From Streptomyces sp. (GTDB lineage Bacteria > Actinomycetota > Actinomycetes > Streptomycetales > Streptomycetaceae), in the NCBI RefSeq assembly GCF_031181705.1, contig NZ_JAPSKN010000006.1, positions 2,433 to 66,432 on the forward strand: a stretch of 64,000 bases of DNA. The letters run 5' to 3'. Positions 59,985 through 63,858 of the stretch are shown in pieces. How positions within the stretch are numbered: the first letter of the stretch is position 1; each line of letters opens with the position of its first letter. The position numbers and the translations under genes were made by a program. Under the pieces are notes generated by a model. The model did no database searches. It was given only the letters and a program-made list of their open reading frames with translations, and was not told the DNA's origin.

Positions 59985-61841
59985 CTACGGCAGTACCGCC
60001 GATTCGAGTGACGTCACGGCGTCGGCCACCGTGGCGGTCACCGGGGCGAGGACGTCCGTGCCGGGCGGTGGTGCGGCCTCGCCGACGGGTGTACCGGGCT
60101 CGGCCTGCGCACAGCAGTCCACCTGTGCGACCCGCGTCTCGTACCGCTCCCCCGGCTCCTGCGGCGTCTCGGGGGCGCCGGGGCGCGCCGGCTCGGACCG
60201 TCGGCCCGGCCCGGTGCTGTCGTAGGGGTGCCGCTCCTGCCGCCGGGGGCTCTGCGCCGGGGCGTCCCCGGCCCGCCGGTCCGCGGGCGGCCCGGGGGTG
60301 GCCGCCCGTTCCAGCGTCCAGCGCTGCACCCGGGATCCGTCGCGGCCGGTGACGATCACGTCCCGGCCCTTTCCGGGCGCGACGGCCCGCCCCGTGCCGC
60401 CCCGGGGCAGGAGTTCACCGCGCACGGTCAGGTCGTAGCGCACGACCCCGGCGGGCACGAGGCACCCCGCCAGGGCCACCGCGCCCGTGCCGGTGTCCGA
60501 CCGGAGGCAGAGCGTGGGGTCCGTGGCACTGCGCAGCAGGCCGTCGTCCTGGTAGGACCACTGCGGGGACCCGGCGGAGCAGGCGGTCAGCACGATCCGG
60601 GCGCCGGTGCGGATGCGGCCGTCCCGGACATCCAGACACAGCTCCTCGTCCTGGTTGCGCAGCCGCCCCCGGGCCACTTCGGCCACGTGCCCGGCGGAGG
60701 CGGCGGACGGGGAGCCCACCGGCGACGAGCCCCGGGCGTCGGGCCCGGCCGGGTCCGGTGCCCCGGGCGAGGTTCCCGCCGCCTCCGGGCCGGACAAGTG
60801 GCCACCGGCCACGCCCCAGGTGGCCCGCGGGTCGGCCGCGCCGCCCTCCTCCGTCCAGCCGCGGGTGGCGAGCAGGGTCGCGAGCAGCACGAGCGCGGTC
60901 ACCCCGACCGCGGCGGCCAGCGCCTTCGGGTGCCGCCTCGGCGGAGTCGAGCGGCCGGGGGTTCGCGGCACGCGGGGACGGAGCCGGTGGCGGCCGCCGG
61001 CAGGCGGACCGTTGTGCTCCGGGGCACGGCCCGGCCGGGATTCGAGGTAACGGCGCGCGCCCCAGCCGAGCACCGTCTCGACGAGCAGGTCCTCCAGACC
61101 GCCCTCGAAATGGCTGAGTTGTTCGGCGGCGTGACGGCAGTAGCGGCACGCCATCAGATGCCGTTGCACATCCGGCAGCAGGGCCCCGCCCCGGCGCATC
61201 GGAACGTCGAGCAGACGGTTGTAGTAGCGGCATTCCGGCGTCGGTGCGAGTTCCCGGTGGGCGCGTACGCACCCGGTCCTGAATTGTTCGCGCGCCTGCT
61301 GCAGGGCGGCCTTTGCCGTTCCCGGATCGACCCCCAGCAGAACGGCCGGTGCGCAAAGGGGTTCGGCCTCGACCTCCGTGTGCCACAGGAGGCACTGGGA
61401 GGCTGCCGGAAGGGCGCGGAATGCGCGCTCGGCGAGGCGCCGCCTTTCCGGTGTCGCGGAACGTGCGGCACGCAGACCGCGGGCGCCGACGGTTTTGCGC
61501 AGCTCCGGCAGGATTCCGGAAATCTCCTCGTCGCAGGCCCACTCGCCGACCGTGTCCCGCACGGCCGCGAGCAGGCGCGGGCGCAGGGCGCCGCCGCCGG
61601 GCCTCGCGAGTTCACGGCGGAACGCGGCGGCCGCCGCCATGGACGCCGAATCCCCCGACGAGGCCAGACAGATCACGGCGTACGCGTGGACGGGCCGCCA
61701 GTGCCGGGCGAGCAACAGCGCGACGGCGCGGGGGCTTTCGCGGGCCTCGCCGACCTGGGCGAGCAGATTGCGGTCGGACTCCGCGGGCCGCGCTCCGGGG
61801 CGCGGCGGATACGGCGGTCGTGGGGGGTTCGGGGAGTGCAC
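59985..61841 (-). CDS. Sigma-like/zinc-finger membrane protein with ricin-type lectin domain
   Basis: A 618-residue mosaic. Residues about 20-195 resemble a diverged sigma-70 factor. H228-x3-C232-x2-C235 is a ZAS-like anti-sigma zinc motif. A membrane helix lies at about 307-326. Beyond it a ricin-type beta-trefoil (about 395-525; DEELCLDVRDGRIRTGARIVL, ATDPTLCLRSDTGTG) is outside the cell, followed by a disordered tail. GTG 61841 follows GGAAGGAAATG. The order sigma-like, zinc finger, helix, lectin suggests a signalling protein reporting on external glycans (inference). Confidence 0.78.
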   Translation of the reverse strand: MHSPNPPRPPYPPRPGARPAESDRNLLAQVGEARESPRAVALLLARHWRPVHAYAVICLASSGDSASMAAAAAFRRELARPGGGALRPRLLAAVRDTVGEWACDEEISGILPELRKTVGARGLRAARSATPERRRLAERAFRALPAASQCLLWHTEVEAEPLCAPAVLLGVDPGTAKAALQQAREQFRTGCVRAHRELAPTPECRYYNRLLDVPMRRGGALLPDVQRHLMACRYCRHAAEQLSHFEGGLEDLLVETVLGWGARRYLESRPGRAPEHNGPPAGGRHRLRPRVPRTPGRSTPPRRHPKALAAAVGVTALVLLATLLATRGWTEEGGAADPRATWGVAGGHLSGPEAAGTSPGAPDPAGPDARGSSPVGSPSAASAGHVAEVARGRLRNQDEELCLDVRDGRIRTGARIVLTACSAGSPQWSYQDDGLLRSATDPTLCLRSDTGTGAVALAGCLVPAGVVRYDLTVRGELLPRGGTGRAVAPGKGRDVIVTGRDGSRVQRWTLERAATPGPPADRRAGDAPAQSPRRQERHPYDSTGPGRRSEPARPGAPETPQEPGERYETRVAQVDCCAQAEPGTPVGEAAPPPGTDVLAPVTATVADAVTSLESAVLP

Positions 61842-61998
61842 GGAACCATTTCCTTCCAGCCGCAGGACGGCAGGCGACTTGCGCGTCCGTACGAAAGCAG
61901 GCGGGTGATTGGTGCATACCTGTGCCGCGTCAGCTGCGGACCCGGCTGTGAGGCGGCTCACCTTCGCACATACGACTGACAGGCAACAAGGAGTTCGC
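61842..61998. other. Intergenic leader between the sigma-like gene and a small open frame
   Basis: No coding sequence with family features. It holds a GTGAG-GCGG-CTCAC inverted repeat (61948-61961) and CATACG, a -10-like hexamer, near 61969. Promoters for both flanking directions probably lie here. Confidence 0.4.
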
Positions 61999-62187
61999 AT
62001 GCCCCACGTTCAAAACGAGGGATATTCAGATATGTTACCGACGGTATTCGCACCGGCTTTCGAAAATCCCACTGCCCAGAACCTCAAGTTGTGTACGCGG
62101 AAAGGCGGTTGGTCCACGAAATCTCCCCCCTTACAGGGCGGGGTGGCGCGACCCACCGCGCACCGGGACGCCCGGCCTGACATGCGT
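61999..62187 (+). other. Candidate small open frame, AT-rich, TTA codons, strong ribosome binding site
   Basis: An ATG with AAGGAG 5 nt upstream opens a frame beginning MPHVQNEGYSDMLPTVFAPA. Third-position GC is far lower than elsewhere, and TTA codons occur at codon 13 (62035-62037) and at 62131-62133. The frame has no stop before the hairpin at 62188-62212 and continues antisense into the next gene, so it is not a normal gene as read. A one-base backward shift at the C6 run (62125-62130) would reach TGA at 62178, giving about 60 residues. Function unknown; it may be a real small protein or a leader. Confidence 0.4.
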
Positions 62188-62212
62188 GAGCCCCGGCACC
62201 AGGCCGGGGCTC
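62188..62212 (-). terminator. Hairpin terminator between convergent units
   Basis: GAGCCCCGG and CCGGGGCTC form a 9-bp stem with a 7-nt loop. It lies 21 nt past the thioesterase stop and would also end a plus-strand transcript from the small open frame. Confidence 0.65.
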
Positions 62213-62232
62213 TCCTGTCCGGGACGGCCCGG

Positions 62233-62685
62233 TCAGCCGTTGGGGCGCAGGGTCCACACCACCGTCATCTCGCCTGTCACCGCGCCGTCGGCGCGCTGGA
62301 TGGCGACCGCCACCGGGAACTCGGGCCGCTCGCCGGCGTCCAGTTCCGCGACGACCTCGGCGGCCGGCCGGCCCAGGGTGGCCGTGGCGGTCACGGCCCC
62401 CATCGCCAGCTTCCTGTAGGCGATCTCGGCGCTGACGGCCAGCGGCACGGCGCGCGAGAGCTGGTCCCCGAACGCGGCGAGCACGATCGCGCCGCTCGCG
62501 GACTCGCCGAGCGTGAACATCGCACCGGCGTGCGGCCCGCCCACGTGGTTGTGGTACTCGCTCTGGTCCGGCAGGGACACCACCGCACGCTCCGGCGTGG
62601 TCTCCAGGAACTCGAGGTTCAGGGTCCGGGCCATGGGCACCGTGGCGGCGAGCATCTCGCCGATGGACATCTGGTCTGCGCTCAT
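62233..62685 (-). CDS. Hotdog-fold thioesterase (DUF4442/PaaI-like)
   Basis: A 150-residue hotdog protein. EYHNHVGGPHAGAMFTLGESASGAI carries the HAGA core and the acidic residue in the following helix. Family members hydrolyse acyl-CoA. ATG 62685 begins MSADQMSIGEM. It stands alone, with a terminator hairpin downstream. The acyl substrate is unknown. Confidence 0.87.
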   Translation of the reverse strand: MSADQMSIGEMLAATVPMARTLNLEFLETTPERAVVSLPDQSEYHNHVGGPHAGAMFTLGESASGAIVLAAFGDQLSRAVPLAVSAEIAYRKLAMGAVTATATLGRPAAEVVAELDAGERPEFPVAVAIQRADGAVTGEMTVVWTLRPNG

Positions 62686-62833
62686 GACCGCATGTTACTC
62701 ACGAGTAGATGCGCTGACCAGGCCGGTGTGACCACCGCCGCACCGCCACCCACACGCTCGTCCGCGCCGTCCCGTCCGCGGGTTGCTACGCCTCCGTCCA
62801 CGGGCGGTGACCGAATCGTGTCCTGGGCGCGGC

Positions 62834-62839
62834 TAGGGT
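62834..62839 (+). promoter_or_regulatory. -10 element, leaderless arrangement
   Basis: TAGGGT ends 8 nt before the ATG at 62848, with no Shine-Dalgarno site between. A leaderless transcript is likely. Confidence 0.5.
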
Positions 62840-62847
62840 TGCTGCCC

Positions 62848-63858
62848 ATGTGGCCAGGACAGCAGCCGCCCGGGGGCGAGCAGAACCCGCAGACGAACAA
62901 CCCCTACCAGCAGCCGGGGTACCAGCAGCCGAATCCGTACCAGCAGCCGGGCTACCAGCAGCCCGGCCCCTATGGGCAGCAGCCGCAGTGGGGCACTCCC
63001 GCGACGGCCGGCACGCCGCAGCCCCCGCAGGGCGGCGGTGGCGGCAACCGGACGAAGCTGGTCGCGATCATCGCGGCCACGGCGGTGGTCGTGGCGGCCG
63101 GAGTCACCGGCTTCCTCGTGCTGGGCGGCGACTCGGACGACACGGCGGACGGGAGCAACGACAAGAAGCCGGCCCCGACCGCCACGAAGGAGTCCGAGTC
63201 GGAGCCGAGCGCCTCGGCCTCCGGCGACAACCCGCGCGGCGGACCGGGCGAGAAGGCGACCGTTCCGGGCTGGAAGGTCGTCGTCAACACCCGTTTCGGC
63301 ACCAAGTTCGACGTGCCGGCGGACTGGGAGATCGACACCCAGGACACCAGCGTGGGCTTCGAGTGGGAGAAGAAGGACGGTGAGCTGGACCGCACCACCG
63401 TCACGGCCCCGGCCTATCTGAAGTCCAAGTGGTGCACGAGCGACGACAACAAGGACGGCCGCGAGGAGGACACCGCACTCGCCACCGCCGGTACCCGCGG
63501 CGAGAACGGCGCGAAGAACTCGGACATGGCGGCCGAGACGCGCGTGCCGTGGTGGATCTTCGGCGGCTACACCCAGCCCGACAAGAAGAGCGTCAAGTTC
63601 ACCAAGCCCAAGCCCTACACCACCAAGTCGGGCGTCAAGGGCAGTGTCGCCACGGCGCACTCGGAGAACACGCCCCAGAAGGGCAAGTGCGACAGCGAGG
63701 GCAAGGCGATCACCTTCGCCTTCAAGAACGGCGCGGGCGACTTCGTCACCTGGAACCTCTACGGCGCCAAGGGCGTCAAGGACGAGCTGCCCGAGGCGAC
63801 CGTCCGGAAGATCCTCAGCACCGTGCGCCTCACCGAGGAGCCGCCCACCGAGTCGTGA
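62848..63858 (+). CDS. Membrane-anchored protein with YQQP-repeat N-terminus
   Basis: A 336-residue protein with no named domain. A cytoplasmic N-terminus rich in Pro, Gln and Tyr has the repeated unit NPYQQPGYQQP (about residues 18-45). One membrane helix lies at 70-93, followed by an acidic, Ser/Thr-rich linker and an extracytoplasmic domain of about 200 residues with two cysteines (SKWCTSDD and KGKCDSEG) that could pair. Similar Streptomyces membrane proteins are of unknown function. It is upstream of an MFS gene. Confidence 0.8.
   Translation: MWPGQQPPGGEQNPQTNNPYQQPGYQQPNPYQQPGYQQPGPYGQQPQWGTPATAGTPQPPQGGGGGNRTKLVAIIAATAVVVAAGVTGFLVLGGDSDDTADGSNDKKPAPTATKESESEPSASASGDNPRGGPGEKATVPGWKVVVNTRFGTKFDVPADWEIDTQDTSVGFEWEKKDGELDRTTVTAPAYLKSKWCTSDDNKDGREEDTALATAGTRGENGAKNSDMAAETRVPWWIFGGYTQPDKKSVKFTKPKPYTTKSGVKGSVATAHSENTPQKGKCDSEGKAITFAFKNGAGDFVTWNLYGAKGVKDELPEATVRKILSTVRLTEEPPTES

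What the first reader, a model, noticed from the sequence alone, without database searches (positions are those of the whole stretch)
61970..62212. AT-rich small open frame with TTA codons divergent from the sigma-like/ricin gene
A strong AAGGAG-ATG opens a frame with two TTA codons and low GC at third positions, ended by a transcription hairpin but not by a stop codon. A -1 shift at a C6 run would give a ~60-residue product. It could be a small signalling peptide, a programmed frameshift or a regulatory leader for the membrane sigma-like protein.
Basis: partly seen in the sequence, partly recalled or inferred. Interest (0 to 1): 0.6.

Follow-up and report, generated by a model that had tools for sequence, protein, structure and literature searches.

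The report
Conserved switch region mistaken for gene
The supposed small gene is most likely a conserved stretch of Streptomyces control DNA in front of a lectin-like gene, left behind after a neighbouring sugar-metabolism gene was lost, and it only looks like a short reading frame.

Summary
The sequence facts are right: AAGGAG-ATG at 61999, TTA codons at 62035 and 62131, a C6 run at 62125-62130, a hairpin at 62188-62212, no in-frame stop before it. The gene reading is not supported. In relatives the same DNA lies between the divergent ricin-domain gene and a galU paralogue; this genome has lost that galU (about 1 kb missing after 62126). Across 79 distinct loci the constraint is on nucleotides, not codons: changes fall evenly on codon positions (120/110/128), in-frame dN/dS is 1.09, and the frame is broken in 14 of 79. 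The first TTA lies inside a near-palindrome, GTTACCGNCGGTATC, which also lies just upstream of a penicillin-acylase-like gene (23 of 32 motif loci inspected). Two blocks recur upstream of ricin-gene paralogues that have no galU. Best reading: a multi-site cis-regulatory region of the ricin-domain gene, shared with galU where galU survives. A start-like NTG is present in 71 of 79 loci, so a TTA-dependent leader peptide is not excluded, but it is unlikely. The regulator is unknown; nothing was tested experimentally.

The parts
59985..61841 (-).
   Evidence: Pfam Ricin_B_lectin 1.9e-10, residues 391-508, the only Pfam hit; relatives of its N-terminal 271 residues in 183 of 392 genus genomes, often 2-3 matches
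61892..61921 (.). Block P, CGAAAGCAGGCGGGTGATTGGTGCATACCT, nearest to the divergent gene
   Evidence: Conserved in the 79-locus alignment; a degenerate form flagged in 6 of 16 paralogue-type regions, its core visible in some others
61955..61970 (.). Block 1, GGCTCACCTTCGCACA
   Evidence: common paralogue form TTCACCCTTGCACA
61976..62003 (.). Block 2, CTGACAGGCAACAAGGAGTTCGCATGCC: holds the apparent ribosome site and ATG
   Evidence: the fourth base of AAGNAG varies and many loci have AAGAAG, so the ribosome site itself is not conserved
61999..62180 (+). The claimed small frame (ATG, with a -1 shift to the TGA at 62178-62180): judged not a gene
62034..62048 (.). Block 3: near-palindrome GTTACCGACGGTATT (consensus GTTACCGNCGGTATC), a probable operator containing the first TTA codon
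62085..62126 (.). Block 4, CAAGTTGTGTACGCGGAAAGGCGGTTGGTCCACGAAATCTC: last conserved stretch before the deletion
   Evidence: homology to the galU-bearing locus L010 ends here
62126..62155 (.). Junction where the galU paralogue of relatives is missing
   Evidence: blastn of the window against L010: alignment ends at 62126 and resumes at 62156 (a short piece from 62145); about 1 kb more lies between the pieces in L010; no galU core remains
62188..62212 (.). Hairpin next to the 3' end of the leftward DUF4442 gene; probably that gene's terminator (inference)
   Evidence: z -3.05; a similar hairpin sequence follows galU in L010
62233..62685 (-). DUF4442 gene on the other side
   Evidence: Pfam DUF4442 2.5e-22

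Best explanation
The stretch 61892-62126 is a multi-site cis-regulatory intergenic region, not a gene. It belongs to the divergent ricin-domain gene; in relatives it also lies in front of a galU paralogue that points the other way, and this genome has lost that paralogue. Shown: DNA-level conservation, lack of a coding signature, sharing of blocks 1 and 2 with ricin-gene paralogues without galU, recurrence of the block-3 near-palindrome upstream of an acylase gene, and absence of galU from the window. Inferred: a dimeric transcription factor binds GTTACCGNCGGTATC (with other factors on the remaining blocks) and controls the ricin-domain gene, galU where present, and the acylase gene. The apparent ATG, TTA codons and low-GC third positions are side effects of AT-rich sites in a GC-rich genome.
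For: 79 distinct loci. Parsimony changes by codon position among the 71 with NTG in phase: 120/110/128 (codons 2-12), 67/60/76 (codons 13-22). dN/dS 1.09 in frame, 0.73 and 1.00 in the other frames. GTTACC has no change in those 71, while the centre base of the palindrome changes 26 times over the 79, the reverse of what a codon NCG would do. The motif persists where the frame is broken: 9 of 14 exact, against 47 of 65 with the frame intact. A matrix of blocks 1+2 beats each region's own 60 shuffles in 15 of 15 paralogue-type regions; no GalU was found in those fetched stretches of about 2-3 kb. Exact motif: 66 matches in 121 genomes, 1 for the reversed-pattern control (counts include orthologous copies); with one mismatch in five genomes, 15 against 3. 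Of 32 motif loci inspected, 23 lie upstream (mostly about 30 bp) of one acylase family and 3 beside a ricin-domain gene, one of these (L283) with no GalU hit. galU is missing or damaged in 18 of 77 assessable loci, with the blocks kept. Window RNA folds no better than shuffles (z +0.89, +0.77); no Rfam family reaches its threshold.
Against: An NTG sits exactly 36 nt before the TTA in 71 of 79 loci (GTG 51, ATG 12, TTG 7, CTG 1). In-frame stops are the rarest of the three frames (7 of 1420 codons, 11 and 21 of 1349). Broken frames are somewhat commoner where galU is lost (6 of 18 against 8 of 59, Fisher p 0.08), as a galU-linked leader peptide might predict. RNAalifold is better than 20 column shuffles (-28.1 against -19.3, sd 3.0); the reverse strand reaches -29.4, but without shuffles of its own. 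Block 3 is not seen in the 16 paralogue-type regions, so its tie to the ricin-domain gene rests on orthologues. Block P is clear in only some paralogues. No binding or transcription data.
Confidence: 0.78

Rival explanations
1. A translated leader peptide. An NTG-started frame with a conserved TTA at codon 13 makes downstream galU expression depend on the bldA leucyl-tRNA; in the window it is a relic without its galU.
For: NTG exactly 36 nt before the TTA in 71 of 79 loci; TTA conserved; fewest in-frame stops; frame breakage somewhat commoner after galU loss (p 0.08). In L013 the frame, read by eye, ends in an ATGA overlap near galU.
Against: No codon-position signal, in-frame dN/dS 1.09. 8 of 79 loci lack an NTG in phase with the TTA and 6 more have a stop before it. 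All three phases occur relative to galU (17, 9 and 7 of 33 loci). The TTA is part of a motif found upstream of an acylase family. The start-base variants reduce to 9 parsimony changes, and all 7 TTG cases share the form ATTGAC or TTTGAC.
Confidence: 0.08
2. A structured 5' leader RNA (riboswitch- or attenuator-like) or small RNA transcribed rightward.
For: Long fixed-spacing conserved blocks; RNAalifold energy about 2.9 sd below 20 column shuffles; one co-varying pair at 61943/61955 (93% standard pairs) just before block 1.
Against: The reverse strand reaches a similar energy; single-sequence folds are no better than shuffles; nothing in Rfam above threshold; the two strongest column associations are not base pairs.
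Confidence: 0.1
3. Pure relic: decaying remains of the galU upstream region with no present role in this genome (can be true here even if the best explanation holds for relatives).
For: galU is missing here; block 3 deviates from consensus in one base (GTATT); by eye the downstream phase differs by one base from L010.
Against: Blocks 1 and 2 are shared with paralogues without galU, so they have a role independent of galU. Blocks 1-4 persist in other loci without galU such as L253 and L254; matrix and motif scores of galU-less loci are lower but not significantly (p 0.07 and 0.12).
Confidence: 0.12

Closest known systems
BldD box, TNAC(N)5GTNA (Streptomyces, c-di-GMP-responsive repressor BldD)
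   Same: Near-palindrome with 5-bp spacing: TTAC-CGNCG-GTAT matches 5 of the 6 specified bases
   Different: The last A is T in 93% of the 71 loci, and bases within the 5-bp spacer are conserved too. Consensus read in passages of PMC4151990.
BldM / BldM-WhiI sites (TCACcCgnncGgGTGA; TGnnCCGnnCGGGTGA)
   Same: Block 1 contains TCACC or TCACT in orthologues and TCACCC in many paralogues, like the BldM half-site
   Different: The second half-site is absent. Consensus read in passages of PMC4125116.
GalU, UTP-glucose-1-phosphate uridylyltransferase (TIGR01099)
   Same: The gene next to this region in L010 is a galU paralogue (331.6 bits, cut-off 326.8)
   Different: It is absent from the window; the genome keeps another GalU-type protein on contig C65, 73% identical to the paralogue
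bldA/TTA-codon-dependent control in Streptomyces (recalled)
   Same: A TTA triplet near the start of a frame
   Different: The TTA here is part of an operator-like motif, and the frame is not maintained

Membership tests
Protein-coding small gene | Purifying selection on codons (third positions most variable, dN/dS below 1) | tested here: not met
   Changes 120/110/128 by codon position; dN/dS 1.09 in frame
Protein-coding small gene | Start codon and frame conserved in relatives | tested here: inconclusive
   NTG at the fixed place in 71 of 79; frame broken in 14 of 79
Protein-coding small gene | Product or translation observed | not testable with these tools
   No ribosome profiling or proteomics
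Programmed -1 frameshift | Slippery site conserved with both frames maintained | tested here: not met
   The C6 run is at the junction; in the stretches printed I saw no other C6 there (L043 has C5); downstream phase varies
BldD box | TNAC(N)5GTNA | tested here: not met
   5 of 6 specified bases; GTAT in place of GTNA (consensus)
BldM group I/II site | Full 16-bp site | tested here: not met
   Half-site resemblance only, by eye (consensus; loci)
Described RNA family (Rfam 15) | Score above the gathering threshold | tested here: not met
   the nearest, Guanidine-II at 62191-62231, scores 21.6 against 32 and lies on the hairpin
cis-regulatory operator | Symmetric motif recurring at separate intergenic sites above a control | tested here: met
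   66 exact matches in 121 genomes against 1 for the reversed pattern; two recurrent contexts
cis-regulatory operator | Bound by a protein and affecting transcription | not testable with these tools
   No binding data

The most novel reading that the evidence does not exclude
The TTA triplet serves twice: as part of an operator and as a bldA-dependent codon in a translated leader, so that transcription of the ricin-domain gene and translation of galU read the same bases.
Probability: 0.05. Interest if true: 0.65.

Novelty: new member of a known kind. Interest (0 to 1): 0.3.

Why it matters
It removes a doubtful small gene and explains its odd codons. It also points to an operator-like motif, GTTACCGNCGGTATC, recurring at two loci in Streptomyces (ricin-domain gene plus galU, and a penicillin-acylase-like gene). 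One search of open-access papers for fragments of the motif gave 14 papers, 13 listed, none about Streptomyces by title; one for a related regulon listed 10 of 318 papers, none naming the acylase. A regulator for it could be sought directly.

Tried and rejected
Considered and rejected: (1) an N-terminal extension of GalU: in L010 the frame is fused to GalU, but over the 33 loci examined all three phases occur. (2) An RNA element: Rfam and single folds give no support; alifold does, but the reverse strand reaches a similar energy. (3) A sigma-70 promoter or T-tailed terminator: none found in 61800-62300; Streptomyces promoters often depart from that pattern (recalled). (4) BldD or BldM sites: consensus not met. 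(5) Start-base composition (G 51, A 12, T 7, C 1) as proof of a start codon: it reduces to 9 parsimony changes. Column covariation looked dominated by shared ancestry.

Rows dropped: one search took 87 sequences (window; L039-L085 except L042; L151-L190); 3 had no leader (L068, L082, L084) and 5 were duplicates, leaving 79. Two (L066, L169) are cut by contig ends and left out of the galU count. dN/dS and the codon-position changes used the 71 with NTG 36 nt before the TTA, so start conservation is not independent there; only pairs up to 30% different entered dN/dS. The phase count covers 33 of 79. Loci were found by similarity to this region or to galU, so diverged copies are missed. The tree was built from the leader alignment including the galU side, so galU-less loci may cluster; its 9 loss steps are rough. 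In one search three regions (L253, L254, L256) were scanned inside the gene by mistake and rescanned without shuffles (61.1, -8.6, 3.2); L253 and L254 proved leader-type, L256 paralogue-type. The motif loci are mostly one per genome as the tool chose them, not all 66 matches.

Full report
Observation. The stated features are present: AAGGAG-ATG at 61988-62001, TTA at codons 13 and 45, C6 at 62125-62130, a hairpin at 62188-62212 and no in-frame stop before it. The hairpin folds well (z -3.05) but has no T run, and the terminator scan found nothing. The region is locally AT-rich (57% GC in 61900-62099). The frame's product matches no Pfam family.

What it is in relatives. Parts of 61900-62126 match 5 of the 60 other genomes at E<=1.5e-13; the rest of that list is at or near chance level, apart from a second piece in G009 beyond galU. 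With the copy from relative G009 (L010) as query, 71 of 392 genus genomes, the own one included, match at E<=1e-8. In L010 the stretch lies between the divergent ricin-domain gene and a galU paralogue (TIGR01099 331.6 bits), and a galU core follows in many other loci. In the window galU is missing: homology to L010 ends at 62126 and resumes beyond galU, and no galU core remains. Another GalU-type protein, 73% identical to the paralogue, is elsewhere in the genome. Loss is recurrent: 59 of 77 assessable loci keep at least 250 of 285 core residues and 18 do not. Named carriers include S. prunicolor (L069) and S. fulvoviolaceus (L072) (names, leaders).

Is it coding? From 87 sequences taken, 79 distinct loci remained. 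An NTG lies exactly 36 nt before the TTA in 71 (GTG 51, ATG 12, TTG 7, CTG 1); 4 have it one base out of phase; 4 have none. Six more have a stop before the TTA, so 14 of 79 are broken. Among the 71, in-frame dN/dS is 1.09 (0.73 and 1.00 in the other frames) and mean identity at codon positions 1, 2, 3 is 0.77, 0.75, 0.72 for codons 2-12. Parsimony changes are 120/110/128 and 67/60/76. Against this reading: stops are fewest in frame (7 of 1420 against 11 and 21 of 1349), the NTG is widespread, and broken frames are somewhat commoner without galU (6 of 18 against 8 of 59, p 0.08). The phase relative to galU is 17, 9 and 7 of the 33 loci for which it was computed.

What the conservation is. The constrained columns form blocks: P (GGAAAGCAGGTGC.TGATTGGTGC.TACCT), 1 (GCTCAC.TTCGCACA), 2 (AACAAG.AGTTCGA.TGACC), 3 (GTTACCG.CGGTATC) and 4 (a TTGTG...CAC pair). 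Block 3 is a near-palindrome around a free centre base. GTTACC does not change in the 71 loci, while the centre changes 26 times over the 79. Nine of 14 frame-broken loci and 47 of 65 intact ones match it exactly. Exact GTTACCGNCGGTATC occurs 66 times in 121 genus genomes (45 of them have it) against 1 for the reversed pattern; with up to one mismatch in five genomes it is 15 against 3. These counts include orthologous copies. Of 32 loci inspected (L193-L196, L200, L273-L299), 23 lie upstream, mostly by about 30 bp, of one penicillin-acylase-like family; 3 are ricin-domain loci, one of them (L283) without a GalU hit; 6 gave no hit to the three query proteins, and one of those six (L273) shows the leader blocks by eye. 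The window copy deviates in one base (GTATT).

Link to the divergent gene. Relatives of the ricin-domain protein's N-terminal part occur in 183 of 392 genomes, often 2-3 matches. Of 19 upstream regions fetched besides the window's own, 3 are leader-type (L253, L254, L270) and 16 paralogue-type; none showed GalU in the stretch fetched. Blocks 1 and 2 are visible in the 16; a matrix of blocks 1+2 scores above the region's own 60 shuffles in 15 of the 15 scanned with shuffles. Block P is flagged in 6 of the 16. So blocks 1 and 2 do not depend on galU. At the place of the NTG, paralogues have none in 15 of 16 (one GTG, L271); four bases earlier 12 of 16 have a TTG or GTG, within another conserved word.

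Mechanism. Inferred: a regulatory region with several protein sites controls the ricin-domain gene and, where present, galU; block 3 is bound by an unidentified dimeric regulator that also acts at the acylase gene. BldD and BldM consensus sites are resembled but not met (passages read). RNA readings are weak.

Verdict. The small gene is most likely not real. The DNA under it is conserved and regulatory in character. Literature: searches (listings seen, plus passages of PMC4125116 and PMC4151990) showed me no report of this motif or region; most subscription journals are not in that library.

Noticed in passing
L193-L196 around position 1500; own genome G000 contig C18:1844-1858: GTTACCGNCGGTATC sits about 30 bp upstream of a penicillin-acylase-like gene (weak NCBIfam match to PvdQ-type acylase, 22.1 bits against a cut-off of 950) in many genomes of the genus.
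   Followed up: partly
G000 contig C179:3318-3332 (L200); L275, L285, L295, L299: Further exact copies of the motif with no hit to the acylase, ricin-domain or GalU queries nearby; possible other targets or chance.
   Followed up: no
L270, about position 123 in the oriented locus: Block P appears twice in tandem as GATAGGTACGTACCT, containing the perfect 12-bp palindrome AGGTACGTACCT, in a leader-type locus with no galU in the fetched stretch and no NTG.
   Followed up: no
L043, L064, L177, L184, L188: galU paralogue reduced to fragments beside a leader that keeps its blocks: repeated decay of this galU in the genus.
   Followed up: partly
window 61909-63858: A single open frame of 649 aa runs from the leader, antisense through the DUF4442 gene, into the next rightward gene: a GC-rich artefact that could mislead gene callers.
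   Followed up: yes
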